Part shown: positions 35,616 to 56,644 of the stretch, one piece after another
Numbering within the stretch: position 1 is the first letter of the stretch
Layout: the number at the start of each line of letters is the position of its first letter
Assembly: GCF_003568845.1 (NCBI RefSeq)
Contig: NZ_CP030127.1
Coordinates: 837,501 to 901,500, forward strand
Direction of reading: 5' to 3'
Origin: Indioceanicola profundi
Lineage (GTDB): Bacteria; Pseudomonadota; Alphaproteobacteria; Azospirillales; Azospirillaceae
Length of the DNA stretch: 64,000 bases
Program-made: the position numbers and the translations under genes
Notes under the pieces: generated by a model
The model's input: the letters and a program-made list of their open reading frames with translations, nothing else
The model's database searches: none
Told to the model about the DNA's origin: nothing

Positions 35616-35710
35616 TGGTGGGTTCGTGCACTCTTTGACGCCACGCGGGCGTATCGGGCAGGGCCGCGCATGTTCCGCCCAGTGCCGCAGCACCGGGCGA
35701 AGCGCCCGCA

Positions 35711-38804: not shown

Positions 38805-38974
38805 GGTAGGGCTCCCCGCAGAACAAATCGAATGGATTAGTTTTTCTCCTTTTGCGCGTCCTGGACTTCCCCGCACCGTCCTAAGACTTTCGCATAGGAG
38901 CTTTACGTTTTGCTTTTTCATAGAATACGAACAGTGAGCGCCGACGTATCGCGCTATAATGTGGTAATGCGACG

Positions 38975-39613
38975 ATGAGCATTGTTCAGTTCGCTTACTT
39001 AATCATACCTGGACTGGTCATCGGACATGTGATCGGCGCGTGGGCTCTTACGCAGCAGGATCAATCACTTGGCCGCGTCGGCACTTCCTGCTTCCGGCTC
39101 TGCATGGTTGCGGCCGGCGCCCTGATCGGCTTCATTGCCGCCGGTTTCCCGCCCTGGCCAAGCATGGCGGTCGCCGGACTGGGGTGGGCGTTGCTCGCCG
39201 TCTCGGCCCTTGATCTGCGAGCGATGGTGATCTCCGACGGGATGGCCCTGCCGGTCGCGGCAGCCGGTCTCGTCATGGCGGCCCTGGACGGCATGGCCGT
39301 ACTCGCCCTGCATGCGGCTGCGGCTCTCGCCGGGTTCCTGGCCGTCTGGCTGGTCAGCCGCGGCATCAGAATGGCCCGCGGGGTAGAGGCAATCGGCAGC
39401 GGTGATGCCGTGCTTCTGGCTGCCGCCGGAGCCTGGGTCGGGCCCGACCTGCTGCCGGTCGTCATGGTCACGTCCGGACTGGTCGGCATGTGCGCCCTCG
39501 GCGTGATGGCCGCTGCCAGCGGGGCTTCGCTCCAGACCAGAATTCCCTTCGGCCCGGCCATCGCCTTGGCGGCTTGGCTGGCCTATGTGCTGAAACTGAG
39601 TGGTGGCATCTGA
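38975..39613 (+). CDS. gspO: Type IV prepilin peptidase (A24), GspO-like, short form
   Basis: A 212-residue membrane protein with about six helices. The two aspartates of A24 peptidases are visible in SALDLRAMVISDG and in the GxGD motif EAIGSGDAVLLAAAGAWVG. IPFGPAIALAAW closes the family signature. It lacks the N-terminal cysteine-containing methyltransferase domain of full GspO/PilD, so it may only cleave. It should process the pseudopilins encoded further right. It overlaps gspE as TGATG and is divergent from gspD. Confidence 0.83.
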   Translation: MSIVQFAYLIIPGLVIGHVIGAWALTQQDQSLGRVGTSCFRLCMVAAGALIGFIAAGFPPWPSMAVAGLGWALLAVSALDLRAMVISDGMALPVAAAGLVMAALDGMAVLALHAAAALAGFLAVWLVSRGIRMARGVEAIGSGDAVLLAAAGAWVGPDLLPVVMVTSGLVGMCALGVMAAASGASLQTRIPFGPAIALAAWLAYVLKLSGGI

Positions 39614-41301: not shown

Positions 41302-42481
41302 GTACGAGGTCGTCGAGCAGGACGGACGCCGCGCCGTCGGCATGCTGGCCGGGACAGACAGCCAGGACGTGGCCCGGCGGCTCCAGGCCCGCGGGGGCGT
41401 GCCGCTACGTGTATCCGAACGGCAGGTGCCCCGCGCGGGCGGGCGCGGCGCTTCCGCCATCATCGTGGCCCGGCTGTGTCAGGATCTGGCATCGCTGCTG
41501 CGGGCGGGCATGCGCATCGACGACGCCCTGATCGCTCTGGCGGAGGCGGCGGATCTCGGCCCGGCTGGCAAGATCCTGCCGACGTTAGCCGCCCGCGTCC
41601 GCGCCGGCCAGCGCCTGTCCGAAGCCCTGGCGGAGCGGCCGGACCTGGCGCCCGGCTATCTGGTCGGATTGGTGGCTGCCGGCGAGGAAACGGGCGATCT
41701 GGCGGGCGTTCTTGAGGTGGCGGGACGGCTTGCCGGCCGGCAAGCCGAGACGGTGCGCTCGCTAAAGTCCAGCCTCACCTATCCCATCATCCTGCTGACG
41801 ACCGCCGGGATCAGCATCGGGGTGCTGTTCACGATCGTGATCCCCCAGTTGGAGCCGCTGTTCGCCGGGGCGGAGGGCCGCCTGCCCTGGGTAACGCTGG
41901 TCGTCCTGGCGGTGAGCCGCGCGGTCCGCGAATACGGAATGATCGCGCTGATCGTCCTGGCTTTGACCGTCCTTGGGATCAGGCTTGCCATGGGCAGCCC
42001 GGCCGGCCGTCGCTGGGTTGACGAGACTCTGCTCCGGCTGCCCATCATCGGGCCGCTGGTGCGGGCGGCACAGGCTTCACAATTCGCCCGCATGATCTCC
42101 GGCCTGCTGGCAGGCGGGCTGGTACTGGAGAAGGCGCTGGAGCTGGCGCAAGGCGGCCTCAGCAACAGCGTGATGCGCGATGCCGTGTCGCGGGTTCAGG
42201 ACGGGGTCGTCCGGGGCGAGCGGATGGGTGACAGTCTGGCGGCCACCGGAGCCTTCCCGAAGGTTGTCTCCGACCTGGCCCGTGTCGGCGAGTCCGGCGG
42301 CAGCCTGCCCACCTCCCTAGCCCGCGCGGCCGATATACTGGAGGAACGGTCGGAGAGCGGGACCAAACGGTTGCTCGCGATCCTTGGGCCGGCGGTAACG
42401 CTGCTGCTGGGCGGCCTGATCGCGCTGACCGTTGCTTCGGTGGTGCTGGCCATCATGAGCGTCAACACCATCGCCCAATAA
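41288..42481 (+). CDS. gspF: Type II secretion inner-membrane platform protein GspF
   Basis: 397 residues from the ATG at 41288 inside the end of gspE. Typical N-terminus MPLFEYEVVEQDGRRAVGML, two T2SSF domains (SLLRAGMRIDDALIAL with VAAGEETGDLAGVL; and RMISGLLAGGLVLEKALEL with LARVGESGGSLPTSL) and three membrane helices. Integral platform protein that converts GspE motion into pseudopilus growth. Last gene of the plus-strand unit, with a hairpin downstream. Confidence 0.95.
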   Translation: MPLFEYEVVEQDGRRAVGMLAGTDSQDVARRLQARGGVPLRVSERQVPRAGGRGASAIIVARLCQDLASLLRAGMRIDDALIALAEAADLGPAGKILPTLAARVRAGQRLSEALAERPDLAPGYLVGLVAAGEETGDLAGVLEVAGRLAGRQAETVRSLKSSLTYPIILLTTAGISIGVLFTIVIPQLEPLFAGAEGRLPWVTLVVLAVSRAVREYGMIALIVLALTVLGIRLAMGSPAGRRWVDETLLRLPIIGPLVRAAQASQFARMISGLLAGGLVLEKALELAQGGLSNSVMRDAVSRVQDGVVRGERMGDSLAATGAFPKVVSDLARVGESGGSLPTSLARAADILEERSESGTKRLLAILGPAVTLLLGGLIALTVASVVLAIMSVNTIAQ

Positions 42482-42533: not shown

Positions 42534-42998
42534 TTACTTCCGGATCACCACCGGCACATCGACCGTGGCGCCATCGCTGCCGAAGGACACGAAGTCCGGG
42601 CGGATCGTTTCGACCGTCCAGCCAGCGATATCGTCACCCTGGCGGACACTCTTCTGCCGACCATCCTCGTCGCTCACCACCACGATAGCGATCCCGCCGG
42701 ACAAGGCGACGCCCTGCACTCTCGGCACGCCGGGCTGGCCGGTATCGCCCAACGCGATCTCCACGTCCCCCTCTGGCGGGCGGCGTCCGGGGGAAAAGAT
42801 CGGGCGCTCCGTCATCGTGACGACATGGGGCTCCACGGCGACCACCGGAAGGGGACCTGCCTTCGCGGCGGCAAGCTGCCCGTTCTCCGCGCCGGTGAGC
42901 GGGCCGGCCGGAGGCGGCGTCGGCTGCCACGCCAGCGCCGTCCAGGCCAAGGCTGCGCCGGCGACAAGGGCGGAGACGGGAAGGATGTGGCGTTTCAT
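42534..42998 (-). CDS. GspC/GspN-like type II secretion protein
   Basis: 154 residues: a short cytoplasmic start, one membrane anchor (HILPVSALVAGAALAWTALA), a Pro-rich linker and a compact periplasmic domain with ERPIFSPGRRPPEGD, VQGVALSGGIAIVVV and VRQGDDIAGWTVETIRPDFV. This resembles the HR domain of GspC (or PilP), which docks onto the secretin, but the protein lacks a PDZ or coiled-coil domain. It overlaps gspM by 4 bases as the last gene of the minus-strand unit. No other GspC is in the window, so it probably fills that role; GspN is the alternative. Confidence 0.6.
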   Translation of the reverse strand: MKRHILPVSALVAGAALAWTALAWQPTPPPAGPLTGAENGQLAAAKAGPLPVVAVEPHVVTMTERPIFSPGRRPPEGDVEIALGDTGQPGVPRVQGVALSGGIAIVVVSDEDGRQKSVRQGDDIAGWTVETIRPDFVSFGSDGATVDVPVVIRK

Positions 42999-43555
42999 CG
43001 TGCGGCCTCCACTGCGACGGCCTCGATCTCGGCCTGGAGGAGAAGGGGGACGATCCCGTCTTCTGCGGCCTGGGCCGAAGTGCCAATGCTGATCTGGGCG
43101 ATGGACAGGACCGGATCATGTTTGGCGAACGCTGCCAGGAAGTCCGGCAGGTTCGGCTCATCAAGATTAGCACGCAGCCGCGTCCGGACGGTCAGCACAT
43201 CGCCGTTCTTCTTCGCCGAGAGCGGCTCAAGGCTCAGCACCTGGGCGCCAGCCCCTGCCGCCACGGCCTGGGCCAACGACTGTAATTCCGCCGCGGCCAG
43301 AGCCTCGCCTGTCGCCTGGAGGGTACCGGCGACACGGCCGCGCGCCTTCAGGGCGGCCTCGATCTCCGGGGCCCGGGCCGCAGAGGCTTCCAGCCGGTGC
43401 TGCCATTCCGCCGCGGCGGCGACCCGGTCCCACCCCTCCTGCCAGCGGAGGACCAGCGGGGCCACCAGCCATTGGCAGAAGCCCGCGACCAGGATGAACA
43501 GAATGGACAGGGCCAGAGCCCGCCGGATCGGCGGGGACAGGTCAGCGATTGCCAT
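42995..43555 (-). CDS. gspM: Type II secretion assembly protein GspM
   Basis: 186 residues from the ATG at 43555. One N-terminal membrane helix (ALALSILFILVAGFCQWLVA), an Ala-rich coiled-coil stretch, and a ferredoxin-like periplasmic domain ending EAVAVEAAR. The size, topology and position between gspL and the GspC-like gene identify it as GspM; sequence conservation in this family is low. It overlaps gspL by 14 bases. Confidence 0.75.
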   Translation of the reverse strand: MAIADLSPPIRRALALSILFILVAGFCQWLVAPLVLRWQEGWDRVAAAAEWQHRLEASAARAPEIEAALKARGRVAGTLQATGEALAAAELQSLAQAVAAGAGAQVLSLEPLSAKKNGDVLTVRTRLRANLDEPNLPDFLAAFAKHDPVLSIAQISIGTSAQAAEDGIVPLLLQAEIEAVAVEAAR

Positions 43556-44606
43556 GGGCCACCTTGCTGGTCTGGGCTTCGATCTGCGCCACCAACCCGA
43601 ACTGGTCGCCGCCATCGGGAGCGGGAACCACAGGTCCGCGCAGCGCTGTAGCGGCGAAGAGCGGGGAGTCTTCGATGTCCCGCGCTACGACTGCGGCAGA
43701 GCCGCCCTCGGCCTGCACTTCAACGCTTCCGGTGGTGAAGCGCAGGCTGGTAACATGGGTGGCGTCCTCCACCACGCGCGTGAGTTCGGCCAGGGCGGCC
43801 AGGGCCGTCACGCGGGCGCGGAATTCCTGGACCGTGCTCTGCAGCGCGGCGTCGGCCTGCAGCCTCTCCTCCATCTGGGCGGTGCGACCTGCAGTGACGC
43901 GGAGCTGTGCCAACTGCGCCTCCATCTCCTCCGCCAGACGTTCGACCCGCTGGACCGGGACGATCACAGCGATGGCAAGCGCGGCCGCTGCTCCGGCCCA
44001 GCCTGCGGCATGCAGGCGCTTGGTCCGGGGGGGAATGGTCGGTCCGGCCGCCAGCGGCAGATCGACTTGCTCGCCATCCAGTTCCGCCTGGAGACTGGCC
44101 GCCCGCGCACCAGCGGCCGTGATCGCATCGAGGACCGGCGCGATCACCCGCTTCGGCAGGCAGACCATGTCCACCGTCAGGGTACGCGCCCCGTCCTGCC
44201 GCGGAAGCAAGCGGTAACCGATCAGAACGTCGGCAGCACGGAACGGTGTCCGCCGGTCCACCTCGAACGCCAGCGCCGTCTGAAGGGAAGCCTGGACGCT
44301 GGCGGGCAGCGAAAGGCGCTGGACCAGAAAAGCGCCCTCCTCCACACGGATCTGAAGGGACGCGTTCCGCAGGAAGGGCGCCATATCCTGCACCGCGATC
44401 TGCGACCGCGCCCACTCCGCGCCTGTTACCGCGCGCCCATCCCGACGAAGGGAGATGCGCTCCCGCGTCAGACGCAGTTCCGCGCGTCGTGCGCGGGCAA
44501 GCCGCTTGAGCCGGGCCGGCACACAGGCGGCCAGCTCCCCCACCCACCAGGAAAAGCCCTGACGTAACCCATCCAGCGCGCCCTGTGCAGTCAAAGTCTT
44601 GTCCAT
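43542..44606 (-). CDS. gspL: Type II secretion protein GspL (PilM/PilN-like)
   Basis: 354 residues from the ATG at 44606. A cytoplasmic actin-like part (MAPFLRNASLQIRVEEGAFL, TALAFEVDRRTPFRAADVLI) precedes one membrane helix (AGWAGAAAALAIAVIVPVQ, about residue 225) and a periplasmic coiled-coil plus ferredoxin-like domain. It links GspE to the pseudopilus base. It starts one base after the end of gspJ. The frame to 44738 is upstream noise. Confidence 0.82.
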   Translation of the reverse strand: MDKTLTAQGALDGLRQGFSWWVGELAACVPARLKRLARARRAELRLTRERISLRRDGRAVTGAEWARSQIAVQDMAPFLRNASLQIRVEEGAFLVQRLSLPASVQASLQTALAFEVDRRTPFRAADVLIGYRLLPRQDGARTLTVDMVCLPKRVIAPVLDAITAAGARAASLQAELDGEQVDLPLAAGPTIPPRTKRLHAAGWAGAAAALAIAVIVPVQRVERLAEEMEAQLAQLRVTAGRTAQMEERLQADAALQSTVQEFRARVTALAALAELTRVVEDATHVTSLRFTTGSVEVQAEGGSAAVVARDIEDSPLFAATALRGPVVPAPDGGDQFGLVAQIEAQTSKVAHGNR

Positions 44607-44607
44607 G

Positions 44608-45156
44608 TCAGCCCCCTGCCCGAAGGCGTGCGGTGATGGTCCAGGGCTCGTCCTCGGGACCGAGACGAAGTTCCACGATGACCGGCAGCTGCGTCGGGGT
44701 CTGCCACTCGGACAGCCAAGGCCCCGTCGGCGTTTCACGATAGCGCAACCTCAGCCCGGCCGGGGCTGGTGCAATCAGGTGTGTCTTGGGCTCAACCGCG
44801 TTGGTCCGCAACGGGGCCCAACTCATGACGATGCCGTCACGGTCCGGCTTTAGGTTCACCAGATGCGGGCCGGCCTGTCCGAAGCGCGCCGGAAGATCGG
44901 TGACGAACGCGATCCGGCCGGCCTCTCCCTGGAACAGCAGGGGCGCATTGTCCCGCCGGCGCGACCGCACCGGCTGCGCCGCGCTGAGCCAGTCCTGAAG
45001 CTGGCGCGCCAGGACGAAGCCGTCCCCGCGGTCTCCCGGCGCTTCCGCCGCCTTGCGGACAAGGGCGAGCGCATGCTGTCCGCCCATCCAAATCATCCCG
45101 AACAGGGTCAGGGCGATCATGGCTTCCAGCAGCGACAGGCCCGGCCGCCGCTTCAT
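44608..45156 (-). CDS. gspJ: Type II secretion minor pseudopilin GspJ
   Basis: 182 residues beginning MKRRPGLSLLEAMIALTLFG. The prepilin cleavage site is Gly-Leu rather than the usual Gly-Phe, with Glu at mature position 5. The rest is a beta-rich domain ending RLGPEDEPWTITARLRAGG. Minor pseudopilin of the tip complex. It overlaps gspI by 4 bases. Confidence 0.83.
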   Translation of the reverse strand: MKRRPGLSLLEAMIALTLFGMIWMGGQHALALVRKAAEAPGDRGDGFVLARQLQDWLSAAQPVRSRRRDNAPLLFQGEAGRIAFVTDLPARFGQAGPHLVNLKPDRDGIVMSWAPLRTNAVEPKTHLIAPAPAGLRLRYRETPTGPWLSEWQTPTQLPVIVELRLGPEDEPWTITARLRAGG

Positions 45157-45572
45157 GGCGTCACCTCTTCCAGGATGACCCGGCGGGTCTTGATCTGGAC
45201 AAAGCGCGCACCCGGTTCAGGGCTTTCCGCGACCTGGACGGTAAGGTCCACCAGTCGGGCCGGAACGCCGCGCGGGCGGGGCCGCGCGCAGCAGATTTCC
45301 AACCGCCAGGGGCGGCCGTCCGCGGTTTCGCCGTCCAGAGTGGTGACTGCACGGTCGAATGCCTCGGGCGGAAACTGCCGCTCCACGGTCGCAAGAGCGG
45401 CTTCGGCGGCCAGTACCGCCGCCTCCGTCCGGGGGGCCTGCGCCGATACCCGGCTTGCCAGGGAGACGCGCGGCAGAAGAACGCCCAACGAGATGCCCAG
45501 GATTGCCAGAGCCACTAGGCTTTCCAGCAGGATGAAACCCGGGCGGCGCGCGGGATGATGCCTATTCCACAT
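45153..45572 (-). CDS. gspI: Type II secretion minor pseudopilin GspI
   Basis: 139 residues with a leader ending at Gly-Phe in RRPGFILLESLVALAILGIS and Glu5 of the mature helix. Short globular domain with two Cys in EICCARPRPRG. Minor pseudopilin that nucleates the tip with GspJ and GspK. Overlaps gspH by 11 bases and gspJ by 4. Confidence 0.83.
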   Translation of the reverse strand: MWNRHHPARRPGFILLESLVALAILGISLGVLLPRVSLASRVSAQAPRTEAAVLAAEAALATVERQFPPEAFDRAVTTLDGETADGRPWRLEICCARPRPRGVPARLVDLTVQVAESPEPGARFVQIKTRRVILEEVTP

Positions 45573-45981
45573 CGACGCGACCCGTCACGAAATCGATGGC
45601 GATGCGAGACGCCCCATCGCCTTCGCCCAGGGTGAGCCGCCCGCCGGACGATCCGCCATCGGCATCGAACCGGATCAGCGCCGGCCGGCCCGGCGCACAG
45701 ATGCCGAGGACGTCCAGCGGTCCGCCCGGCAATTCTCCTTTGGCAAGAGCCGGCTCCGTCCACCAGGTGCGCCCGTGCAGGTCGAAGAAGACCTCGACGG
45801 GCTGGCGCTGGGCCGTTGCCGTCTGCCGGGCCAGTGTGAGGCCGGAAACGATGGCGCGCGTCGTCATCTGCCGCTGGGCAGCCTCGACCCAGCCCTTCAT
45901 GTTGGGGATGGCCATGGCCGTCAGGCCCAGGATCGACACTGTGACCAGGGCCTCGAGCAGGCTGAAGCCGGGGCGGTTCAT
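45562..45981 (-). CDS. gspH: Type II secretion minor pseudopilin GspH
   Basis: 139 residues beginning MNRPGFSLLEALVTVSILGL, a canonical type IV pilin-like leader, followed by IVSGLTLARQTATAQRQPVE, the GspH/FimT signature helix. Pseudopilus component. It lies 10 bases after gspG and overlaps gspI. Confidence 0.85.
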   Translation of the reverse strand: MNRPGFSLLEALVTVSILGLTAMAIPNMKGWVEAAQRQMTTRAIVSGLTLARQTATAQRQPVEVFFDLHGRTWWTEPALAKGELPGGPLDVLGICAPGRPALIRFDADGGSSGGRLTLGEGDGASRIAIDFVTGRVDVE

Positions 45982-45991
45982 TCCAGTTCCC

Positions 45992-46426
45992 CTACCAGCT
46001 CGTCACGTCGCGCGCTTCACCTTCGCCGCCAGCGGCATTGTCGGCGCCGAGACTGAAGACTTCGACTTCCTGCGTGGCGCCGGGGTAGCGGTACTGGTAG
46101 GGGCGACCCCACGGATCGACCAGGTTTTCCGCCTTGCGGATATAGGGACCGTTCCAGCGCACCGCATCCTGAGGCCGCTCCACGAGTGCGCGCAGTCCCT
46201 CGGACTGGTTTGGGAAGCTGCCGACATCCAGCCGGTAGAGTTCCAGCGTGGATGCCAGATTCTGGACCTGGAGGCTGGCCGCATCGGATTTCGCTCCACC
46301 CAGCATCTTGCCCAGCGTGGGCGAGGTCACGGCGTAGATCAGGCCAAGGATGACCAGACAGACCAGAGCTTCCAACAGCGTGAAGCCCGGACGGCCTTTC
46401 GCCTGCTTCTGGTTCCGACGGTTCAT
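45992..46426 (-). CDS. gspG: Type II secretion major pseudopilin GspG
   Basis: 144 residues from the ATG at 46426, with GGAGGAGG directly upstream. Leader ends at Gly-Phe in GRPGFTLLEALVCLVILGLI. The body has the GspG pattern: LELYRLDVGSFPNQSEGLRA, then WNGPYIRKAENLVDPWGRPY and a C-terminal GEGEARDVTSW, which includes the calcium-loop region. First gene of the seven-gene pseudopilin unit. Confidence 0.93.
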   Translation of the reverse strand: MNRRNQKQAKGRPGFTLLEALVCLVILGLIYAVTSPTLGKMLGGAKSDAASLQVQNLASTLELYRLDVGSFPNQSEGLRALVERPQDAVRWNGPYIRKAENLVDPWGRPYQYRYPGATQEVEVFSLGADNAAGGEGEARDVTSW

Positions 46427-49254: not shown

Positions 49255-50445
49255 ATGAAACGGCGTAGTTTTCTTAAGCGCGGTCTGCTGTCAGGGGCGG
49301 TGGCGGCTGGCGCCGCTGTATCGCCGCTGGGTCTGCGCCAGGGTTTCGCAGGCGACGATGACGTCCTGGAGGACATCCTGGACGATTTCGAAGGGCCCGA
49401 GATCCGTCTCGACATCGACGACGTCAAGCTTGAGCTGATCGATGGCAAGCGGGTGTTCATGTGGGCGTTCGGCCTGCATGACGATGCCCCGACAATCCCC
49501 GGTCCGGTGCTGCGCCTTGAGCAGGGCAAGACCTACCTGTTCGAGATCAGGAACCGGTCCACGTCGCGGCATTCCTTCACCATTCCCGGCATGGTCTCGC
49601 CCGATGGGCTGGCAGTTCATGTCGAACTGGAGGGCAAGGACGACAGCGACAATAGCAGGAAGTCCATCCTGGTCCTGGCCAAGGATTGCGGGGCCTTCCT
49701 GTACCAGGACGCCCTCAACGCTCCGATCGGCCGGGTCATGGGCCTGCACGGCTTCTGTGTCGTCGAACCCAAGGAGAACATTACGGTCGGCAACGGCAAC
49801 ATCCCTTACCCGACCAGCGTCGCGCCGCAGGCGGTGACAAGCCTGTTCGAGACGCTTGGCCTTGAAGGCAGCGTGTTTCCGGGAAATGGCTGGAAGGCCA
49901 AGTCCGATCGCGAACGGGAATGGATTTTCAATTCCGTCGATCCGCGCTGGTGCGACCGGTTCGAACAGGGTCAGGTCGTGAGCGCCGGCGAAGCCACCGA
50001 CTTCAAGCCCCGCTATTTCACGCTGAACGGCAATAGCGGCTATGATGCCGCCCACGACCATGACTGCGTGCCGACAGGAACCATCGGTCAGCCGCTGATC
50101 CTCCGGACCGCGAATGCTGGCCTTGCCTGGCATTCCCCCCATATTCACGGCAACCATGTCTACGAGTTCAGCCGCCGCTCAGCCAAAGGCGAATTGAGGC
50201 TGCACGACAATATCCGCGAGATCGATACCTGGACCATGCCGCCGGGCGAGATCGCTGAACTTCTGCTGCCGTTCAAGATGCCGCCGGATATTCCGCTGTC
50301 CAAACGGCCGCCCAACGCGCAGGAGAAGTTCCCCTACTCGTTTCCCATGCACTGCCACAATGAGATTTCCCAAACCTCCGGCGGCGGCTCCTACCCGATG
50401 GGGCTGGTCACCGATTGGGTGATCACGGGTCCGTACAAGGGCTGA
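49255..50445 (+). CDS. Tat-exported multicopper-oxidase-like protein (C-terminal motif half)
   Basis: 396 residues. The signal peptide has a twin-arginine motif (KRRSFLKRG) and a hydrophobic core (LLSGAVAAGAAVSPLG), so export is folded through Tat. An acidic stretch follows. The first cupredoxin-like domain has lost copper ligands: RHSFTIPG replaces HWHG (about residue 105), and the second-motif position reads AFLYQDALNAPIGRVMGLHG. The last domain keeps the third and fourth multicopper motifs: HSPHIHGNH (about 291) and PMHCHNEIS (about 364). The His normally four residues after HCH is missing. Ligands absent here are present in the next gene. Alone, this chain could not build a standard trinuclear cluster. 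Confidence 0.8.
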   Translation: MKRRSFLKRGLLSGAVAAGAAVSPLGLRQGFAGDDDVLEDILDDFEGPEIRLDIDDVKLELIDGKRVFMWAFGLHDDAPTIPGPVLRLEQGKTYLFEIRNRSTSRHSFTIPGMVSPDGLAVHVELEGKDDSDNSRKSILVLAKDCGAFLYQDALNAPIGRVMGLHGFCVVEPKENITVGNGNIPYPTSVAPQAVTSLFETLGLEGSVFPGNGWKAKSDREREWIFNSVDPRWCDRFEQGQVVSAGEATDFKPRYFTLNGNSGYDAAHDHDCVPTGTIGQPLILRTANAGLAWHSPHIHGNHVYEFSRRSAKGELRLHDNIREIDTWTMPPGEIAELLLPFKMPPDIPLSKRPPNAQEKFPYSFPMHCHNEISQTSGGGSYPMGLVTDWVITGPYKG

Positions 50446-50478
50446 TCCGCGCAACAGACCGCGCCAACGAGGACAATC

Positions 50479-51528
50479 ATGACCGACATCATCATCTCGC
50501 ATCCTGCGCACGATCCGGCGGCATTCGACGAGTTCGGCTGCCATGTCTATGCCGCCAGCCCGTCCACGCCCGACAAGCTGACGCCGACCAAGAGGTTCTT
50601 CCGCCAGGTATCCAGCTGGAACGTCACCATGGCGGATGGCAAGAGCGTGCCGTTCTGGGGGTTCAAGGACCCGAACGTCAGCGGCAGCGACAGCCCCTGG
50701 CCGTCCAAGATCATCCGCGTGAATGTCGGCGACATCGTTCATTGCAACATGAAGCCGTCCAAGGGCACCCATACCATCCATTGGCACGGGATCGAACCGA
50801 CCCCGATGAATGATGGCGTCGGCCACACCTCCTTCGAGGTGAAGAGCGAATATACCTATCAGTGGCAGGCTTCTACGGCGGGCACCTATTTCTATCACTG
50901 CCACAAGAACACCGTGCTGCACTTCGAAATGGGCATGTACGGCATACTGATCGTGGACCCGAAGTCCAAGACCAAGAAGCTTTACGATCCGGAGGAGGGC
51001 GACAAACTTGGCGACGCCACCATCCCTGCCCGCTATCCGGCATATGACGCCGAGGGCATCTGGTGCTTTGACGATGTCGACCCCCGCTGGCACTTGTACG
51101 ACCACGATGCCGGCATCTGCGGCGAAGACATCGGCATGGACCGGTTCGAGCCGAAGTATTTCCTGTGCAGCGGCGTGCCGAGCAACAAGACGCTCACCGA
51201 CTCCCGCACGCTAGTAAAGGCCAAGGCCGGCAGCCCTGTGCTGTTGCGCATCGTCAATGCATCCTACAGCGAGCTGCGGATCACTTTCCCGAAGGATGTT
51301 CTGGTCGCTGAAGAGGACGGCCGCGTTTTCCGCACCAATCCCCTCAGGGGGAACTTCTCCAAGCCGTTCTGGACCAGAACGCTGAACCTGAGCACCGCCC
51401 AACGGTATTCCGTCTTCCTGGACGCGCCCGCGGCCGGCAGGTCGTGTGACGTGAAGACCGAGTTCCTGCACTGGTGCGACTACAACCGGGTCCAGGGCAC
51501 GGTCACAACCCGGGTGCTGGGCACCTGA
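50479..51528 (+). CDS. Multicopper-oxidase-like protein (N-terminal motif half), no signal peptide
   Basis: 349 residues starting MTDIIISHPAHDPAAFDEFG, with no Sec or Tat signal. The first cupredoxin domain keeps the first two multicopper motifs: THTIHWHGIEP (about residue 100) and TYFYHCHKNTVLHFEMGMYG (about 138), the latter with a Cys-His-Met set suitable for a type 1 copper. The second domain (from about residue 245, GSPVLLRIVNASYSELRITF) has no third or fourth motif, and the protein ends there. It lies 33 bases after the partner gene. The two chains together carry one full set of four motifs. A heterodimer exported on the partner's Tat signal is inferred. Confidence 0.78.
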   Translation: MTDIIISHPAHDPAAFDEFGCHVYAASPSTPDKLTPTKRFFRQVSSWNVTMADGKSVPFWGFKDPNVSGSDSPWPSKIIRVNVGDIVHCNMKPSKGTHTIHWHGIEPTPMNDGVGHTSFEVKSEYTYQWQASTAGTYFYHCHKNTVLHFEMGMYGILIVDPKSKTKKLYDPEEGDKLGDATIPARYPAYDAEGIWCFDDVDPRWHLYDHDAGICGEDIGMDRFEPKYFLCSGVPSNKTLTDSRTLVKAKAGSPVLLRIVNASYSELRITFPKDVLVAEEDGRVFRTNPLRGNFSKPFWTRTLNLSTAQRYSVFLDAPAAGRSCDVKTEFLHWCDYNRVQGTVTTRVLGT

Positions 51529-51570
51529 CCCGCCCGGCAGGACGGGACGAAAACCGAAGAGGAGGAAGAG

Positions 51571-52380
51571 ATGAAGGTCGCGCTGTCGGTTGCCGCTGTT
51601 TGTGCGCTCGGGCTTGTCGGGGCTGCAGCATTGCCGCAAGGGCTGATCCCCGGTTGGGGATCAGCCTCCGAGCAGGTTGAAGCTGCCGGAACAACCGCCC
51701 ACGGTCATGAAGAACGGGAACACCGCAGCGCGGCCCGTGAAGAGCTGGAGCGTCAGGGGATCACCGTCAAGAACGGCGGAGCCAAGGTCACCAGGATCGA
51801 GCCGGAAACGGGCTACAGCCATGGGCATTGGCCGGAACCGTCGAGCCTTGGCGGCGACTTCTCACTGGTCACGCACAAGGGGCAGCCGGTGACGCTGGAC
51901 AGCTTCAAGGGCAAACCCAGCGTGATCTTCTTCGGATATGCGAAGTGCGACGATATCTGCCCCTTCAGCGTGCAGCTGATGGGCGCGGCCCTGGATGCCA
52001 TGCCGGACAAGGGAGAGGCGATCAACGCCCTTTTCGTCAGCTTCGACCAGAAATACGAGACGCGGGAAGATCTGGCCCGCTTCATGGCCAAATCGCATCC
52101 CAAGCTGGTCGGGCTGACCGGCACCCGCGCCCAGGTCCATGAAGTGTCGGCCAAGTTCAAGGTCCACCGGGAAATGATGCCGCATGTCATGTGGAAGAGC
52201 GCGGACGAGCCGGGCTGGCGGCATACGTCGCACTACTACCTGCTCTCCGCGGAAGGGAATGTGGTCGACTATGTCTACCCCACCATCTCGCCCGAAGAGT
52301 TGGCGCAGAAGCTGACTGATCTGGCGAACGGCATCATGCCGGTGCCCAAGGTGACGGCAGCCAATACGGCGCAGCATTAA
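51571..52380 (+). CDS. Sco1/SenC-family copper chaperone
   Basis: 269 residues with an N-terminal signal/anchor (MKVALSVAAVCALGLVGAAA) and a His/Glu-rich segment (HGHEEREH). The thioredoxin-like domain has the Sco copper-binding motif CDDICP (CxxxC, about residue 126), preceded by VIFFGYAKC, and the third ligand His in RHTSHYYLL (about 217). Sco proteins deliver copper to CuA or related sites from the periplasm. Here the adjacent genes are multicopper-oxidase-like and no cytochrome oxidase gene is present, so loading of that pair is the likely task. Confidence 0.9.
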   Translation: MKVALSVAAVCALGLVGAAALPQGLIPGWGSASEQVEAAGTTAHGHEEREHRSAAREELERQGITVKNGGAKVTRIEPETGYSHGHWPEPSSLGGDFSLVTHKGQPVTLDSFKGKPSVIFFGYAKCDDICPFSVQLMGAALDAMPDKGEAINALFVSFDQKYETREDLARFMAKSHPKLVGLTGTRAQVHEVSAKFKVHREMMPHVMWKSADEPGWRHTSHYYLLSAEGNVVDYVYPTISPEELAQKLTDLANGIMPVPKVTAANTAQH

Positions 52381-52448
52381 CAGTCGATTTGGGCGGAGGC
52401 TCCCGTCTGGCGCGCTCCGCCCCGAACCTTCCGCACTGGGGAATGGAA

Positions 52449-52622
52449 ATGGGCAATATCGGCATCTGGCAGATCGTATTGGTTCTTCTGGTTTTCATGC
52501 TGCTCTTCGGTGCGGGCAAGCTTCCGCAGGTCGCAGCCGATCTCGCCAAGGGCGTGCGCGGCTTTAAGCGGGAACTCAATGGCGGCGAAGAAGCGGCCGC
52601 CGACAATGTGAAGCAGTCCTGA
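52449..52622 (+). CDS. tatA: TatA/E-type twin-arginine translocase subunit
   Basis: 57 residues starting MGNIGIWQIVLVLLVFMLLF (an ATG at 52443 is an alternative). One membrane helix, the FGAGKLPQ hinge (most TatA proteins have FGRGKIPE) and an amphipathic helix LAKGVRGFKREL, then a charged tail. No tatB or tatC is nearby, so this is an extra TatA placed within the copper-oxidase locus. It probably supports export of the Tat-dependent oxidase of the same locus. Starts 68 bases after the Sco gene. Confidence 0.88.
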   Translation: MGNIGIWQIVLVLLVFMLLFGAGKLPQVAADLAKGVRGFKRELNGGEEAAADNVKQS

Positions 52623-52713
52623 GGGCGGACCTGAACGTTCTCAGGCCCTCCTATAGTTCGTATAGTACCGAATGCCGCTGGACAGGCCCCGCCCTTCGAC
52701 CTTTCATGGCCTC

Positions 52714-53178
52714 ATGAACCGCCGCCCCCCCATATCCCGAAACACCATGCGCAAGGCTGCCCACTGGCTGCTGCTTTGCGCGTTGATGGTCCAGGCCTGG
52801 GTGCCGGCAGGCTTCATGCCCGATATCGGCCGCTTGGCCGAAGGAGGGTTCCCCCTGGTCCTCTGCACCAGGATCATCCAGTCCGGTTCCGCACAAGAAA
52901 GCGCCGTGGCCGCGGACCATGACCATGGTCCGGACATGCATGCCGGCCATCATGACGCCGGTCATGCACCGGCGGAGATGGCGCCGGTCGGTCCCTGCCC
53001 GTTTGCCACCATGGCCGGGGCCGCGCTGCCGGTTCTGCTCTATGCGCTTCTTCTGCTGGTGGTCTGGCCGCGCTCACCGGTTCCAAAACCGCCCCGCACG
53101 GATGTGCGCCGCCCGCTTGCCCGTAGTGCGGACTGCCTCGCCCGCGGACCGCCCGGTCCGGCAGTTTCGGTCGCCTGA
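52714..53178 (+). CDS. DUF2946-like His-rich membrane protein
   Basis: 154 residues from the ATG at 52714; starts at 52672 or 52747 are possible. An N-terminal helix (AAHWLLLCALMVQAWVPAGF) leads to the DUF2946-type GGFPLVLCT, then a His/Asp/Met-rich loop (DHDHGPDMHAGHHDAGHAP) suited to copper or zinc binding, a PCPFATM segment and a second membrane helix. The family is often found beside copper genes. Transport or sequestration of periplasmic copper is a guess from context. Confidence 0.65.
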   Translation: MNRRPPISRNTMRKAAHWLLLCALMVQAWVPAGFMPDIGRLAEGGFPLVLCTRIIQSGSAQESAVAADHDHGPDMHAGHHDAGHAPAEMAPVGPCPFATMAGAALPVLLYALLLLVVWPRSPVPKPPRTDVRRPLARSADCLARGPPGPAVSVA

Positions 53179-53341
53179 GCCGGCCACCGGCAGGATCTGC
53201 CCCGGCAGACACCCGGCCGCCCGCCTGCCTCGGCTGCGATCCCCATGACAGCCACCAAGCACCCGGCCTTTCAGCGCTGGCGCACGATGCCGCGCGCGGC
53301 GGGCTGTGTGCACCCTGGGTATCCCACCGTGCGAGACTGCG

Positions 53342-55387
53342 ATGACTTCCCGACCGCATCTGTTCCTGCGGGCTTCACTGGCCGTTCTAGGCCTGAGCCT
53401 CACCACGCCGGCCCGCGCCGAAACACCCCCACGTACGGCCGCATCGGCCAACGACGCGTCCTTCATCATCGATGAGCTTATCGTGACCGGGTCGCGCATC
53501 CGGTCCAGCGCCAACGTCTTTACCTCTGTCGACGCCATCGGCGCTGACCAGATCGAAAGGCAGAGTGTCGACAATGCGTGGGAACTGCTGGGCCGTATGC
53601 CGGGCGTCCTGCTCACCGATTTCAACCAGGGCACGACCTCCGGCAAGTTTTCGTTCCGCGGTTTCAACGGCGAAGGCGAGATCAATGCCGTTAAGCTGCT
53701 GATCGACGGCATTCCCAGCAACAGCAATGACGGCAACATGCCGTTCATCGACATGGTGTTCCCGCTGGAGCTGGAATCCATCGAGACCGTCCGCGGGACC
53801 ACCGATCCCCGCTGGGGCATCTACAACATCGCCGGCAGCGCCGACATGCGCACCAGGACCGGCGGCGACTATCTGCTGGCCCGCCTGACCGGCGGCAGCT
53901 ACGGCACTGCAGAGGCGCAGGTCGTCGCCGGGGCCGAGGCCGGCGGGTTGAGCCAGAACTATATGTCCGCTTATCGGCAATCCAACGGCTACCGCGACCA
54001 TGCGGAATTCGACCGGGTTAGCGCAGCCGGCAAGTGGTTCTACGCGTTGAACGGCGGCGCGACCAGGATCGGGGCCATCGCACGCTACGCGCAGAACAGA
54101 GCGGAGGAGCCGGGCTATCTGACATTCGAGGATTCCAGAACGACGCCGCAGCTTTCCTACCCCTTTTCGGAGACGGATGGCGGGCGACGGCACCTCGGCC
54201 AGTTCAGCCTGCATCTGGACGCCGACATTACCGATGAGTTGGATGCATCCGCCAAAGCCTATGTGAACCGCTTCAAGGACCGGCGCTGGGTTCAGTTCTC
54301 AGCCGATGTCGCCCAGCAGGAGCGGATTGCCGACGAGTGGCATTGGGGCGGCGTTGCGGCCGTGCACTACACGCCCTCGATCAGCTTCCTGCACGGTCTG
54401 ACCATTGAGGGCGGTGGAGACTTCCAGATCCAGGAGAATGAAAGCCTGCGCTATCTCACCGCCCAGCGGGAGCGCACGCGTCAGACCCGCGATCAGAGTT
54501 TCGATTTCGACATCTATGGCGGTTATGTGCAGGCCGTTATCGAACCTGTCAGCTTTCTGAAGATCGGCCCGGCCTACAGGATCGACGTGCTCGACGGCTC
54601 CTTCCGGGACGGTCTGACCGGTGGGCGCTACGAGATCAACGACTATGGCGTCATCGAGCAGCCGAAGCTGAGCGCCGCGCTCACGCCCATCGATGGCATC
54701 GTGCTCTACGGCAACTGGGGACGCACCTTCCAGACCGGCGTCGGATCGGGCGCCTACAAGGTCCCACCGCGCACCGCCGATCTGGAACCGTCAATCAACG
54801 AGGGCTGGGAAGCGGGCGTCAAGCTCACCCATGGCGACTGGGTGGAAACGCGTTTGGCCTATTGGGAGCAGACAGCCTCCGGCGAGGTGCGGCGGCGCTT
54901 GAACGACCCGCTCGGCGATTTCGACAATCTTGGCCGTACGAAGCGGGAGGGCATCGATGCACAGATCAACCTCCACCCGTGGGAGGCGGTCGAGCTATGG
55001 CTTGCCTATGCGTGGCAGCGCGCCCTGATCGTGGAGCCGGACCCGGCCTCCCCGGCCACCCGCGGCAACCGGATCGACCATGTTCCGGCGCACCTCGTCT
55101 CGGGCGGGGTGGATGTCCAGGTCACGCCCTTGCTGCGCCTCTCCCTCTGGGGAAACGGGCAGAGCAGCTACTATCTGGAGCAGACGAATACGGCGGGACG
55201 GTTCGGCGACTACGTCCTGCTGCATGTCGAGGCGGCGTACCGGATCAGCGAATCCCTCGAGGCATCCATCCAGGTCAAGAACCTGACGAACACCTACTAC
55301 GGATATGTCTGGTGGGACGGCGCGCAGAGCCTGCACTCGCCGGGCGACCGGCGGGCCGTCTACGGCACCCTTGGCCTTCGGTTCTGA
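53342..55387 (+). CDS. TonB-dependent outer-membrane receptor
   Basis: 681 residues from the ATG at 53342 (signal peptide MTSRPHLFLRASLAVLGLSL, cleavage near ARAE). A TonB-box-like IIDELIVTGSRIR precedes the plug (GKFSFRGFNGEGEINAVKLL, ETVRGTTDPRWGIYNIAGSA). The barrel ends with the aromatic GTLGLRF. Position inside a copper-handling gene set suggests uptake of copper or a copper chelate, as for OprC/NosA-type receptors. No copper-specific motif was recognised, and a siderophore substrate is possible. Twelve bases before the PepSY gene. Confidence 0.88.
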   Translation: MTSRPHLFLRASLAVLGLSLTTPARAETPPRTAASANDASFIIDELIVTGSRIRSSANVFTSVDAIGADQIERQSVDNAWELLGRMPGVLLTDFNQGTTSGKFSFRGFNGEGEINAVKLLIDGIPSNSNDGNMPFIDMVFPLELESIETVRGTTDPRWGIYNIAGSADMRTRTGGDYLLARLTGGSYGTAEAQVVAGAEAGGLSQNYMSAYRQSNGYRDHAEFDRVSAAGKWFYALNGGATRIGAIARYAQNRAEEPGYLTFEDSRTTPQLSYPFSETDGGRRHLGQFSLHLDADITDELDASAKAYVNRFKDRRWVQFSADVAQQERIADEWHWGGVAAVHYTPSISFLHGLTIEGGGDFQIQENESLRYLTAQRERTRQTRDQSFDFDIYGGYVQAVIEPVSFLKIGPAYRIDVLDGSFRDGLTGGRYEINDYGVIEQPKLSAALTPIDGIVLYGNWGRTFQTGVGSGAYKVPPRTADLEPSINEGWEAGVKLTHGDWVETRLAYWEQTASGEVRRRLNDPLGDFDNLGRTKREGIDAQINLHPWEAVELWLAYAWQRALIVEPDPASPATRGNRIDHVPAHLVSGGVDVQVTPLLRLSLWGNGQSSYYLEQTNTAGRFGDYVLLHVEAAYRISESLEASIQVKNLTNTYYGYVWWDGAQSLHSPGDRRAVYGTLGLRF

Positions 55388-55399
55388 CGGGAGACAGAG

Positions 55400-56644
55400 A
55401 TGAAACCCTGTTCCGTCGATGGCAAATCCGCTACGCCGCGCCGCTGGTTGCGCAGCTTCTGGCGTCTGGCCCACCTTTATCTCGGCCTGTCGACTGGCGC
55501 CTTGTTCGTCCTGGCCGGAATCACCGGCAGCATTCTGGTCTATTACGTCGAGATCGACCGCTGGCTGAACCCCGAGATACGGGCCGTGGCGTCCAATGCC
55601 CGCCCTTCCTCCTACGAGGACGTGTTCCGTGCTCTTCAGCAGTCTGCGCCCGAGCGAATCGGCGCATGGCGCATCGAAGTGACGGAAAGCGGCGGGGCCA
55701 TTCCCGTACGCTTCTACAAGCCGTCGGAGAGGGCCGGACACGGCTTCAGCCCCTTGATGGCCTGGGTCGATCCGGAAACGCTGGAGGTGGTGCGCAGCAC
55801 CTTCTGGGGCGACTACGCCATGACCTGGATCTACGACCTGCACTTCCGCCTGCTCCTGGGACCGGCAGGGGCCACCATCATGGGGATCGCGGGGCTGGTC
55901 CTGTTGGTTCTGATGCTGAGCGGCGTGTATCTCTGGTGGCCCGCTAGAGGGAAATGGCTGTCCGGCCTGACGGTCAAGGCCAGGACGTCGCCGCAACGAC
56001 GGATCTATGACATCCACAAGGTAACGGGCGTGTACGGGCTGGCGGTGCTGCTGGTCCTTGTCCTGACGGGCGTGGTGCTGAGCCTGCCCGGAACAGTGCG
56101 CCCGCTTCTGGACCGGATGTCCCCCCTGCACGCGCCCTCGGCCGTGTCGCAATGGGTGCCTGGGGCGGAGCGGATCGCGGTGGACATGGCTATGCGCATC
56201 GCGCAGGCGCGGTTCCCGGGGGCCGAGCTGGCATGGATCGAGACTCCGGCCGGCCCCAACGGAACCTTCCGCATCAATCTCTGGCAGGAGGGAGAGCCGA
56301 GCCGGCGCTTCCCGCGCACCAATGTCTGGATCGATCCGTCCTCCGGTCACATCCTGGATGTGCGCGACGGCCGCAATGATAGTGCAGGCGATACCCTGCT
56401 CGCCTGGATGCACCCGCTGCACAGCGGGGAGGCGTTCGGTACAGCGGGCCGTTTGCTGATCCTGCTGTCCGGCATCCTGCCGGTGCTGCTGTTCGCGACC
56501 GGCTTGGTCCGGTGGCGGCAGAAGCAGGACGGTCGCAGCACTGCCCGCCTGAAGTCCGTCGCATCCGAGGTCCGGCCGAAGTCGCACCGCGGTCCAGAAA
56601 TCCGTGCTTCTGTCACCCCCGAACAGGCTTCCCAAGCGGGTTAG
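55400..56644 (+). CDS. PepSY-associated membrane protein (PiuB-like)
   Basis: 414 residues with four membrane segments. The first is typical of the family (RLAHLYLGLSTGALFVLAGI), the second follows YDLHFRLLLGPAGATIMGIA, the third RIYDIHKVTGVYGLAVLLVL, the fourth LLILLSGILPVLLFATGLV. His residues in each helix region could bind heme or metal. Such proteins accompany TonB receptors and are thought to be inner-membrane metal/siderophore reductases or permeases. Coupled to the receptor gene (12-base gap). Confidence 0.85.
   Translation: MKPCSVDGKSATPRRWLRSFWRLAHLYLGLSTGALFVLAGITGSILVYYVEIDRWLNPEIRAVASNARPSSYEDVFRALQQSAPERIGAWRIEVTESGGAIPVRFYKPSERAGHGFSPLMAWVDPETLEVVRSTFWGDYAMTWIYDLHFRLLLGPAGATIMGIAGLVLLVLMLSGVYLWWPARGKWLSGLTVKARTSPQRRIYDIHKVTGVYGLAVLLVLVLTGVVLSLPGTVRPLLDRMSPLHAPSAVSQWVPGAERIAVDMAMRIAQARFPGAELAWIETPAGPNGTFRINLWQEGEPSRRFPRTNVWIDPSSGHILDVRDGRNDSAGDTLLAWMHPLHSGEAFGTAGRLLILLSGILPVLLFATGLVRWRQKQDGRSTARLKSVASEVRPKSHRGPEIRASVTPEQASQAG

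What the first reader, a model, noticed from the sequence alone, without database searches (positions are those of the whole stretch)
49255..56644. A copper-enzyme locus: two partial multicopper oxidases, Sco chaperone, TatA, His-rich DUF2946 protein, TonB receptor and PepSY protein
Seven genes on one strand combine a Tat-signalled oxidase-like protein, a second oxidase-like chain, a copper chaperone (CDDICP), an extra Tat subunit, a His/Met-rich membrane protein and an outer-/inner-membrane import pair. Each family is known, but the grouping suggests one dedicated system: metal import, metal loading and folded export of a two-subunit copper enzyme. I do not know a described system with this exact composition.
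Basis: partly seen in the sequence, partly recalled or inferred. Interest (0 to 1): 0.82.

Follow-up and report, generated by a model that had tools for sequence, protein, structure and literature searches.

The report
Two-chain copper oxidase beside secretion genes
Two neighbouring genes each encode half of a copper oxidase's active site, so the enzyme probably works only as a pair, with one chain carrying the other out of the cell; secretion genes, a haem peroxidase and copper-supply genes sit beside it.

Summary
The seven + strand ORFs are real, but the grouping is only partly right. Core: MCO_A lies beside MCO_B in 38 of 39 loci found with MCO_B alone, from Alphaproteobacteria to Geobacteraceae and Nitrospirae. 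The eight histidines expected of a trinuclear copper site are split four and four between the chains. MCO_A has a twin-arginine motif in 48 of 48 chains examined; MCO_B has no signal-like core in 45 of 49. A read-through model (pTM 0.85) follows four of ceruloplasmin's six domains. I infer an obligate heteromeric multicopper oxidase exported by Tat piggyback. Sco recurs; an extra TatA is rare (3 of 40); no TonB receptor lies near MCO_A in four of four carrying Skermanella genomes. The last three genes resemble the described cruR-crtA-crpH copper-uptake operon. Listings showed no described two-gene multicopper oxidase. Nothing was tested at the bench; the substrate is unknown.

The parts
49255..50445 (+). 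MCO_A: Tat-signalled two-domain cupredoxin chain; domain 2 carries HIH (296/298) and HCH (366/368); no copper motif seen in domain 1
50479..51528 (+). MCO_B: two-domain cupredoxin chain without a recognisable signal; domain 1 carries HTIHWH (98/101/103) and YHCHx5H (140-148); no copper motif seen in domain 2
51571..52380 (+). Sco/SenC copper chaperone (CDDIC motif)
   Evidence: neighbour conservation
52449..52622 (+). extra TatA; two further TatA/B-family genes lie at C1:1244115-1244545
   Evidence: within 5 kb of MCO_A in 3 of 40 genomes
52747..53178 (+). CruR/CutF-like upstream ORF: signal/TM-like start, His-rich stretch, CPFA, 45 residues, RGPP near the C-terminus
   Evidence: family description PMC9426467 section 9
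53342..55387 (+). TonB-dependent receptor following the CruR-like ORF (CrtA-like by position only)
55400..56644 (+). PepSY_TM protein; its only solved-structure match at E 0.01 is 7abw (FoxB by recall)
33054..35729 (-). large di-haem cytochrome c peroxidase (CCP_MauG), 74-76% identical to the copy beside five Skermanella MCO loci
35711..36499 (-). GspK, type II secretion
36496..38921 (-). GspD secretin, read in two overlapping frames (frameshift, real or assembly)
38975..39613 (+). prepilin peptidase (Peptidase_A24)
39490..41301 (+). GspE ATPase (T2SSE; start of the listed ORF probably too early)
41213..42481 (+). GspF
42534..43615 (-). GspC-like by position only (42534-42998, no Pfam support) and GspM (42995-43615, T2SSM_b)
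43542..44738 (-). GspL-like: PilN domain match below the cut-off (19.8 against 22.8 bits); related to the L080 protein with PilN over the cut-off
44608..46423 (-). pseudopilins: GspG by Pfam T2SSG; GspI has the N-methyl motif; GspH and GspJ named by order and pilin-like N-termini

Best explanation
MCO_A and MCO_B are the two subunits of one multicopper oxidase. Shown by sequence: each chain has two cupredoxin domains; four histidines in HxH pairs are invariant in domain 2 of MCO_A and four in domain 1 of MCO_B, which also has the cysteine and histidines expected of a type 1 copper; the other domains show no copper motif. Inferred: the trinuclear site forms only where A domain 2 meets B domain 1, as between subunits of homotrimeric two-domain oxidases or between domains 6 and 1 of ceruloplasmin. 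The model fills four of six positions of a ceruloplasmin-like ring, so a third two-domain chain (a second A or B) probably closes it. Only A has a clear Tat signal, so the pair is probably assembled in the cytoplasm and B leaves as a passenger on A. Copper is then loaded outside the inner membrane, with Sco as the likely donor. In this island and in relatives a type II secretion system, which moves folded proteins, is the likely route across the outer membrane, and a di-haem peroxidase is a likely partner in oxidising an external substrate. The downstream CruR-like ORF, TonB receptor and PepSY protein form a neighbouring copper-uptake unit, probably transcribed on its own. Odds: heteromer 0.85, Tat piggyback 0.75, type II secretion of the enzyme 0.5, substrate class unknown (Mn(II) or phenolic polymers are guesses).
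For: A lies beside B in 38 of 39 loci found with B alone. A1: twin arginines, H296, H298, H366, H368 invariant in 32 of 32; A2: H98, H101, H103, H140, C141, H142, H148 invariant in 33 of 33. Wider set: both A motifs in 50 of 51, B YHCHx5H in 51 of 51. No A has the B-type YHCH and no B the A-type HxH[GA]N. The middle residue of A's second motif is C in 39, S in 5, D in 4, G in 2 of 50, so A needs no type 1 cysteine. A and B distances correlate over 29 loci, r 0.75, maximum of 2000 permutations 0.22. RRxPhi in A 48 of 48, 44 with a charge-free hydrophobic core behind it; no such core near the start of B in 45 of 49. Model pLDDT 83.9, pTM 0.85; residues 47-757 align to ceruloplasmin 2-697, Z 22.3, 509 residues, rmsd 3.7. 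GspG within 15 kb of MCO_A in 12 of 40 genomes; in four Skermanella loci A-B-Sco lie inside the gsp cluster with a 74-76% identical peroxidase (L080, L084, L085, L086). CCP_MauG within 15 kb in 14 of 40 genomes.
Against: No complex has been observed. The model joined A to B through the read-through stop and the 11 codons between the genes, which favours contact, and AlphaFold knows ceruloplasmin; atomic distances could not be measured here. Four B chains have a charge-free hydrophobic stretch near the start: L015, L020 and L022 look like possible signals, L038 is proline-rich. The bare RRxPhi pattern also occurs in the first 60 residues of 10 of 49 B chains, with a core behind it only in L038, and eight of 49 B chains exceed hydropathy 1.0 in their first 50 residues, a level that 30% of internal B segments reach too. 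L079 has A without an adjacent B. Copies 2 and 3 in the same genome stand without Sco, secretion or peroxidase genes detectable by tblastn, so these are not obligatory neighbours. GspD of the window is split by a frameshift. No secretion gene was found near the pair in the non-alphaproteobacterial loci. Several carriers belong to anaerobic groups (by recall), which sits oddly with an O2-reducing oxidase.
Confidence: 0.7

Rival explanations
1. The pair is a periplasmic Cu(I) oxidase for copper resistance (CutO/CueO-like role), controlled and supplied by the copper genes around it; the type II secretion genes are old neighbours without a role in its export.
For: Copper genes flank it in relatives: strict CruR-type ORF divergently upstream in 6 of 11 Skermanella loci, CopC-CopD and YcnI/DUF1775 in L078, Sco in 9 of 11. 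CutF precedes the oxidase gene cutO in R. capsulatus (PMC8456105, PMC9973294). Copies 2 and 3 and the non-alphaproteobacterial loci lack detectable secretion genes nearby. GspD of the window is split.
Against: GspG is near in 12 of 40 genomes, including Hyphomonadaceae, Rhizobiaceae and Hyphomicrobiaceae records besides the window's family, and the oxidase genes sit inside the gsp cluster in four Skermanella loci. A di-haem peroxidase is near in 14 of 40 genomes against PepSY_TM in 5 of 40; copper-export genes were not counted.
Confidence: 0.3
2. All seven genes form one operon and one dedicated system: import, loading, Tat export, oxidase.
For: Same strand, gaps of 33, 42, 68, 124, 163 and 12 bases, families copper- or Tat-related. 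Strict CruR-type ORFs (6 of 11 loci) and PepSY_TM genes recur next to the pair in Skermanella. TatA also lies near MCO_A in a Geobacteraceae and a Desulfuromonadales genome.
Against: No TonB receptor near MCO_A in the four Skermanella genomes searched; TatA near it in only 3 of 40. CruR-type ORFs head their own operons (PMC9426467), and in the six Skermanella loci they point away from MCO_A. A promoter-like site lies at 52638-52666, before the CruR-like ORF, though such sites are no commoner than chance (2 found, 1.5 expected).
Confidence: 0.15
3. A and B are not a working oxidase but a structural or binding pair, like FtsP/SufI or factor VIII, that kept the fold.
For: Two of four domains show no copper motif; some carriers look anaerobic (record titles, recall); factor V/VIII and SufI are among the fold matches.
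Against: The ligand set expected of a trinuclear site and of a type 1 site in B is invariant over very distant sequences, which a purely structural role would hardly keep; Sco beside it in many loci.
Confidence: 0.1
4. Each chain forms its own homo-oligomer and the pair is only genetically linked.
For: Both have the two-domain fold; B alone resembles the two-domain laccase 2zwn (Z 25.5).
Against: Neither chain has the motifs in both domains, so a homo-oligomer would lack half of the eight histidines.
Confidence: 0.07

Closest known systems
Homotrimeric two-domain multicopper oxidases (2zwn metagenome laccase, 3g5w blue copper oxidase of Nitrosomonas, small laccases)
   Same: Two cupredoxin domains per chain; B domain 1 aligns with the HTIHWH and HCH...H motifs of 2zwn; B aligns to 2zwn with Z 25.5, rmsd 2.4 over 256 residues
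   Different: Known ones are built from identical chains with motifs in both domains (recalled; trimeric class described in the abstract start of PMC13151041); here the motifs are divided between two different chains
Ceruloplasmin and Mnx (MnxG, 9bxa) six-domain oxidases
   Same: A+B model follows four of the six ceruloplasmin domains in order (Z 22.3); Mnx is the second Foldseek hit
   Different: One polypeptide with six domains there (recalled); two genes with four domains here, third unit unknown
cutFOG of Rhodobacter capsulatus (CutO oxidase with the sensor CutF)
   Same: Oxidase genes next to a CutF/CruR-type ORF in Skermanella and near a degenerate one in the window
   Different: CutO is encoded by one gene; here two chains, and the sensor ORF does not directly precede the oxidase genes
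cruR-crtA-crpH (bp2923-bfrG-bp2921) copper-uptake operon of Bordetella pertussis
   Same: Order CruR-like ORF, TonB receptor, PepSY_TM
   Different: Window ORF has CPFA for CXXC and RGPP for RAPP; CrtA membership not established; lies beside an oxidase pair
OmpB multicopper protein and its atypical type II system in Geobacter (Mehta et al. 2006, seen only in a reference list)
   Same: A multicopper protein linked to type II secretion
   Different: By recall OmpB is a single large protein; relation to A/B not tested
Tat hitchhiker enzymes (hydrogenases, nitrite oxidoreductase NxrAB)
   Same: Only one subunit has the signal (PMC3578206 passages)
   Different: Those are metal enzymes of other families; my searches listed none for a multicopper oxidase

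Membership tests
two-domain multicopper oxidase | two cupredoxin domains per chain | tested here: met
   B aligns to 2zwn, A to 3wia nitrite reductase
two-domain multicopper oxidase | trinuclear-site motifs in both domains of one chain, so that identical chains form the site | tested here: not met
   A has motifs only in domain 2, B only in domain 1
two-domain multicopper oxidase | trimeric assembly with four coppers per active unit | not testable with these tools
   needs protein
Tat hitchhiker complex | one partner with a twin-arginine signal | tested here: met
   RRxPhi in 48 of 48 A chains, 44 with a charge-free core (L029, L033, L034, L041 miss my rule); starts were chosen upstream of the RR pair; 4 of 52 chains set aside
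Tat hitchhiker complex | other partner without an export signal | tested here: met
   no charge-free hydrophobic core near the start in 45 of 49 B chains; L015, L020, L022 possible signals, L038 doubtful; 3 of 52 set aside; no dedicated signal predictor was available
Tat hitchhiker complex | export of the passenger depends on the partner | not testable with these tools
   needs mutants
type II secretion system | secretin, ATPase, platform protein and major pseudopilin encoded together | tested here: met
   GspD, E, F, G with K, M and prepilin peptidase over Pfam cut-offs
type II secretion system | intact secretin | tested here: inconclusive
   gspD in two overlapping frames; three other secretins in the genome
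CruR/CutF (DUF2946) | Pfam DUF2946 score over the curated cut-off | tested here: not met
   12.7 against 23.7 bits, nearly full-length alignment
CruR/CutF (DUF2946) | CXXC copper motif and C-terminal RAPP | tested here: not met
   CPFA and RGPP instead; the loose pattern that finds it also matches seven unrelated-looking frames in other loci
CruR/CutF (DUF2946) | spacing of about 45 residues between the motifs, short ORF before copper genes | tested here: met
   45 residues; first of three genes with TonB receptor and PepSY_TM; reported spacing 45
CrtA TonB-dependent copper transporter | membership of the CrtA sequence cluster, conserved ligand-site residues, 707-911 residues | tested here: inconclusive
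   681 residues from ATG 53342, below the reported range; no PDB sequence match at E 1; CrtA sequence not compared
PepSY_TM reductase (FoxB/CrpH superfamily) | PepSY_TM domain over the cut-off | tested here: met
   218 bits against 28.8; 7abw (FoxB by recall) is its only solved-structure match, E 1e-23
PepSY_TM reductase (FoxB/CrpH superfamily) | haem-binding histidines and reductase activity | not tested
   -
Sco/SenC | SCO1-SenC domain with CxxxC | tested here: met
   112.5 bits; CDDIC in the sequence
TatA | TatA_B_E domain | tested here: met
   48.8 bits; TIGR01411 58.7 over its cut-off 53.9

The most novel reading that the evidence does not exclude
The first multicopper oxidase whose trinuclear copper site is built between two separately encoded, mutually degenerate chains. 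It arose by duplication of a two-domain oxidase followed by complementary loss, is pre-assembled in the cytoplasm, exported as a pair by Tat piggyback, loaded by its own Sco, and passed through a dedicated type II secretion system together with a di-haem peroxidase for oxidation outside the cell.
Probability: 0.35. Interest if true: 0.8.

Novelty: new variant of a known kind. Interest (0 to 1): 0.62.

Why it matters
If right, it is a clear case of an active site split between paralogous subunits after duplication, which ties the evolution of two-domain oxidases to that of six-domain ones such as ceruloplasmin. It would add a copper oxidase to the enzymes exported by Tat piggyback, and gives a testable Tat-then-type-II route for a folded multisubunit oxidase. 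The invariant ligand sets and the A-B gene pair give a signature for annotating it; at present Pfam barely recognises A, so it is easily logged as two partial oxidases.

Tried and rejected
That the two genes are fragments of a broken three-domain oxidase: rejected, because both are two-domain chains conserved as separate genes from Alphaproteobacteria to Nitrospirae, and no fused frame appeared (longest open frame holding an A match: 573 aa). That TatA marks the system generally: 3 of 40 genomes only. That the window's TonB receptor travels with the pair: no Plug-domain gene within 15 kb of MCO_A in the four Skermanella genomes searched. That tblastn with the window's proteins shows all neighbours: it missed the PepSY_TM and CruR-like genes in Skermanella which profile and motif searches then found, so tblastn counts for short or variable genes are lower bounds. 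That the window's DUF2946-like ORF is a plain CruR: it fails the strict pattern and the Pfam cut-off; the loose pattern also hits L020, L039, L043 (twice), L046, L050 and L051. Naming a substrate: an animal-type haem peroxidase lies beside the pair in 6 of 39 loci, the source locus of the query included (Pfam run on the L035 copy only; L020 has a weak 67-residue hit), and such peroxidases are known in Mn(II) oxidation by recall; not enough to commit. A match to the literature on Mn oxidase complexes: the 13 papers listed all came in through 'multicopper oxidase complex', mostly Mn oxidation; none was opened. Copper-regulated transcription could not be tested; promoter and terminator scans gave no more sites than chance. 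How common the pair is: 4 of 58 relatives besides the window's own genome, all in one genus of which a fifth member (G016) lacks it; 2 of 387 sampled genomes of the class, one of them the window's own (where only up to five candidates per genome were scored), so it looks rare and patchy.


Full report
Observation. The seven ORFs exist on the + strand as stated and the family calls hold, except that MCO_A is barely recognised by Pfam (E 0.0015, below cut-off) and the DUF2946 match is below its cut-off (12.7 against 23.7 bits). The window is G000:C2:837501-901500 of a 5.37 Mb genome in four contigs. Its relatives of genus g8 are taken to be Skermanella, because G025 has the same size and hit coordinates as G059, the genome of L009, titled Skermanella aerolata; Skermanella belongs to Azospirillaceae.

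The oxidase pair. A scan of genome contigs with MCO_B alone gave 39 loci, and MCO_A lies next to it in 38; the exception, L043, starts inside MCO_B. In L009, L019 and L023 the MCO_A frame is broken or truncated. Record titles range over Alphaproteobacteria, an Acidimicrobiia, a Bdellovibrio MAG, Deltaproteobacteria/Desulfuromonadales and Nitrospirae. A and B are distant paralogues (about 22-28% identity). The window's genome has three copies of the pair. The pair looks rare: 4 of 58 relatives besides the window's own genome, all in genus g8, whose fifth member searched (G016) lacks it; 2 of 387 sampled genomes of the class, one being the window's own (only up to five candidates per genome were scored there).

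Divided ligands. The A alignment holds 32 of 41 chains available then (left out: L009, L019, L023 broken; L026 start unclear; L020 close to L015; L039, L041, L042, L047 long or divergent). Its invariant columns include R3, R4, H296, H298, H366 and H368. The B alignment holds 33 of 42 chains (left out: L016, L020, L023, L032, L039, L042, L043, L044, L047); H98, T99, H101, H103, H140, C141, H142 and H148 are invariant. In a wider set of 51 A and 51 B chains, which includes the chains left out above, both A motifs occur in 50 (L023 is broken), B's HT[IV]HxH in 50 (L043 is cut by its contig end), and YHCHx5H in 51; a stricter B pattern first missed nine Skermanella chains because they read YLYHCH. 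No A has B's YHCH and no B has A's HxH[GA]N. From established knowledge of multicopper oxidases, four HxH motifs, two from each of two cupredoxin domains, bind the three trinuclear coppers, and a Cys-His-(Met) set beside one HxH binds type 1 copper. Here B domain 1 supplies two HxH motifs and the type 1 set (aligned with the laccase 2zwn), and A domain 2 supplies the other two. In A the residue between the histidines of the second motif is Cys in 39, Ser in 5, Asp in 4 and Gly in 2 of 50, so a type 1 site is not kept in A. The simplest reading is complementary loss after duplication, leaving an obligate heteromer. A and B distances correlate across 29 shared loci (r 0.75; maximum of 2000 permutations 0.22); this shows shared inheritance, not contact.

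Model. The two ORFs share a frame with 11 codons between A's stop and B's start, so the pair could be folded as a read-through chain. Mean pLDDT is 83.9 and pTM 0.85. Foldseek ranks a venom prothrombinase (factor V type), Mnx (9bxa) and ceruloplasmin first. VIA-align 2 lays model residues 47-757 on ceruloplasmin 2-697 with Z 22.3, 509 residues, rmsd 3.7, that is, four of six domains in order (domain limits recalled). B alone fits 2zwn (Z 25.5) and A fits a nitrite reductase (Z 18.9). In that register A domain 2 meets B domain 1, the interface type that holds the trinuclear site in ceruloplasmin (domains 6/1, recalled). A ring of six domains needs a third two-domain chain; which one is open.

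Export. A carries RRxPhi near the N-terminus in 48 of 48 chains examined (4 of 52 set aside; starts were chosen upstream of the RR pair, a bias, but the pair is invariant), 44 of them with a charge-free hydrophobic core behind it. In B, 45 of 49 chains (3 of 52 set aside) have no charge-free hydrophobic core in the first 40 residues; L015, L020 and L022 have one that could be a signal and L038 a proline-rich one. The bare RRxPhi pattern occurs in the first 60 residues of 10 of 49 B chains, with a core behind it only in L038. No dedicated signal-peptide predictor was at hand. Passenger export on a Tat-signalled partner is established for other enzymes (PMC3578206 passages). The genome has two further TatA/B-family genes at C1:1244115-1244545, so the window's TatA is an extra copy; such genes lie within 5 kb of MCO_A in 3 of 40 genomes.

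The missed partners. Upstream, at 35711-46423, lies a type II secretion cluster (over Pfam cut-offs: GspK, GspD, prepilin peptidase, GspE, GspF, GspM, GspG; GspL below), and at 33054-35729 a large di-haem peroxidase (CCP_MauG). In Skermanella the oxidase genes sit inside the secretion cluster: L080, L084, L085 and L086 have gspD and gspO (and, except in L085, gspE and gspF) on one side, MCO_A-MCO_B-Sco, then gspL and a peroxidase 74-76% identical to the window's. Of the 11 Skermanella loci fetched, 5 have secretion genes, 5 the peroxidase, 9 Sco and 10 an adjacent MCO_B (tblastn). Of 39 database loci, 9 have secretion genes, 11 Sco, 4 this peroxidase and 6 an animal-type haem peroxidase, its source locus included (tblastn; Pfam on one copy). 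With profiles over 40 genomes: GspG within 15 kb of MCO_A in 12, eleven of them alphaproteobacterial by title or kinship and one an unnamed bacterium; CCP_MauG within 15 kb in 14 (G000, G007, G030, G034, G059, G075, G076, G078, G079, G081, G085, G087, G088, G089). T2SS genes as such are common in these genomes (GspG in 36 of 41), so it is the closeness that counts: with one to four GspG genes in genomes of several Mb, chance would give about one genome in fifty (my estimate). The genomes are related, so 12 is not 12 independent events, but at least four families are involved by title.

The copper genes. The ORF at 52747-53178 has a signal-like start, a His-rich stretch, CPFA, exactly 45 residues, then RGPP near its end. 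CruR of B. pertussis has CXXC and RAPP separated by 45 residues and controls the TonB receptor gene behind it (PMC9426467 abstract and sections 9, 10). CutF-like proteins with varied cysteine motifs but a conserved PP are reported (PMC8456105 section 28), and CutF controls an oxidase gene (PMC9973294 abstract and section 11). CrtA genes are followed by PepSY_TM genes in more than 75% of loci and headed by cruR in more than 40% (PMC12914433 section 4); CrpH supports haem-copper oxidases (PMC13038864 abstract and section 20). The window's last three genes therefore repeat a described operon layout, with degenerate motifs; the loose pattern that includes the window's ORF is not specific, since it also hits seven other frames in the fetched loci. 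That copper is imported for respiration in B. pertussis is evidence against assuming that this operon serves the oxidase. In favour of a link, ORFs with the strict CXXC-RAPP pattern lie divergently upstream of MCO_A in 6 of 11 Skermanella loci (L078, L080, L081, L084, L085, L086) and, overlapping copies of the same loci aside, nowhere else in the fetched DNA; two of the six score over the DUF2946 cut-off in a genome search (those of L078 and L081) and the L080 one does not (19.7 bits). PepSY_TM lies within 1.4 kb of an MCO_A gene in all four MCO_A-bearing Skermanella genomes.

Verdict. What is unusual is the division of one copper site between two genes with one export signal; secretion genes and a peroxidase are commoner partners than TatA and the TonB receptor. 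Searches for a described two-gene oxidase or its hitchhiking (listings) showed nothing of the kind in the open-access library; subscription journals are mostly not covered.

Noticed in passing
window 36496-38921 (-): The secretin gene gspD is split over two overlapping frames; real frameshift or assembly error. Three other secretin genes exist in the genome.
   Followed up: partly
window 47906-48785 (-): IS4/5-type transposase in two overlapping frames (DUF4096) between the secretion cluster and MCO_A; it may have separated a once continuous island.
   Followed up: no
window 32149-32889 (+) and 47028-47345 (-): A sigma-70-like (ECF-type) factor and a zinc-finger anti-sigma-like protein flank the secretion/peroxidase block (the zf-HC2 match is just below its cut-off); similar-looking sigma or anti-sigma ORFs lie near the pair in L076 and L083 by eye.
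   Followed up: partly
window 56775-59951 (+): 1058-residue protein with Sde182 nucleoside-hydrolase-like and SASA esterase domains directly after the PepSY gene; a possible secreted protein.
   Followed up: no
L018:6078-11997 (+), also near MCO_A in L013, L016, L022, L025, L035: Very large animal-type haem peroxidase beside the oxidase pair, in loci where the di-haem peroxidase was not found by tblastn.
   Followed up: partly
L030:6281-8284, L031:6162-8234 (+): A protein of about 670-690 aa directly upstream of MCO_A in two Geobacter-type loci, with a CHRD domain in L030; di-haem peroxidase directly downstream of MCO_B.
   Followed up: partly
L038:7933-9132 (+): A third gene, a diverged MCO_A relative, follows A and B; it could be the third chain that closes the ring.
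   Followed up: no
L049:2235-3236 (-), L080:17449-18657 and 18994-19887 (-): Secreted-looking proteins without Pfam match beside oxidase pairs; look alike by eye.
   Followed up: no
L078, L081: Oxidase pair beside a copper island: strict CruR-type ORF, and in L078 YcnI/DUF1775 and CopC-CopD (Pfam); Sco- and PCuAC-like ORFs by eye.
   Followed up: partly
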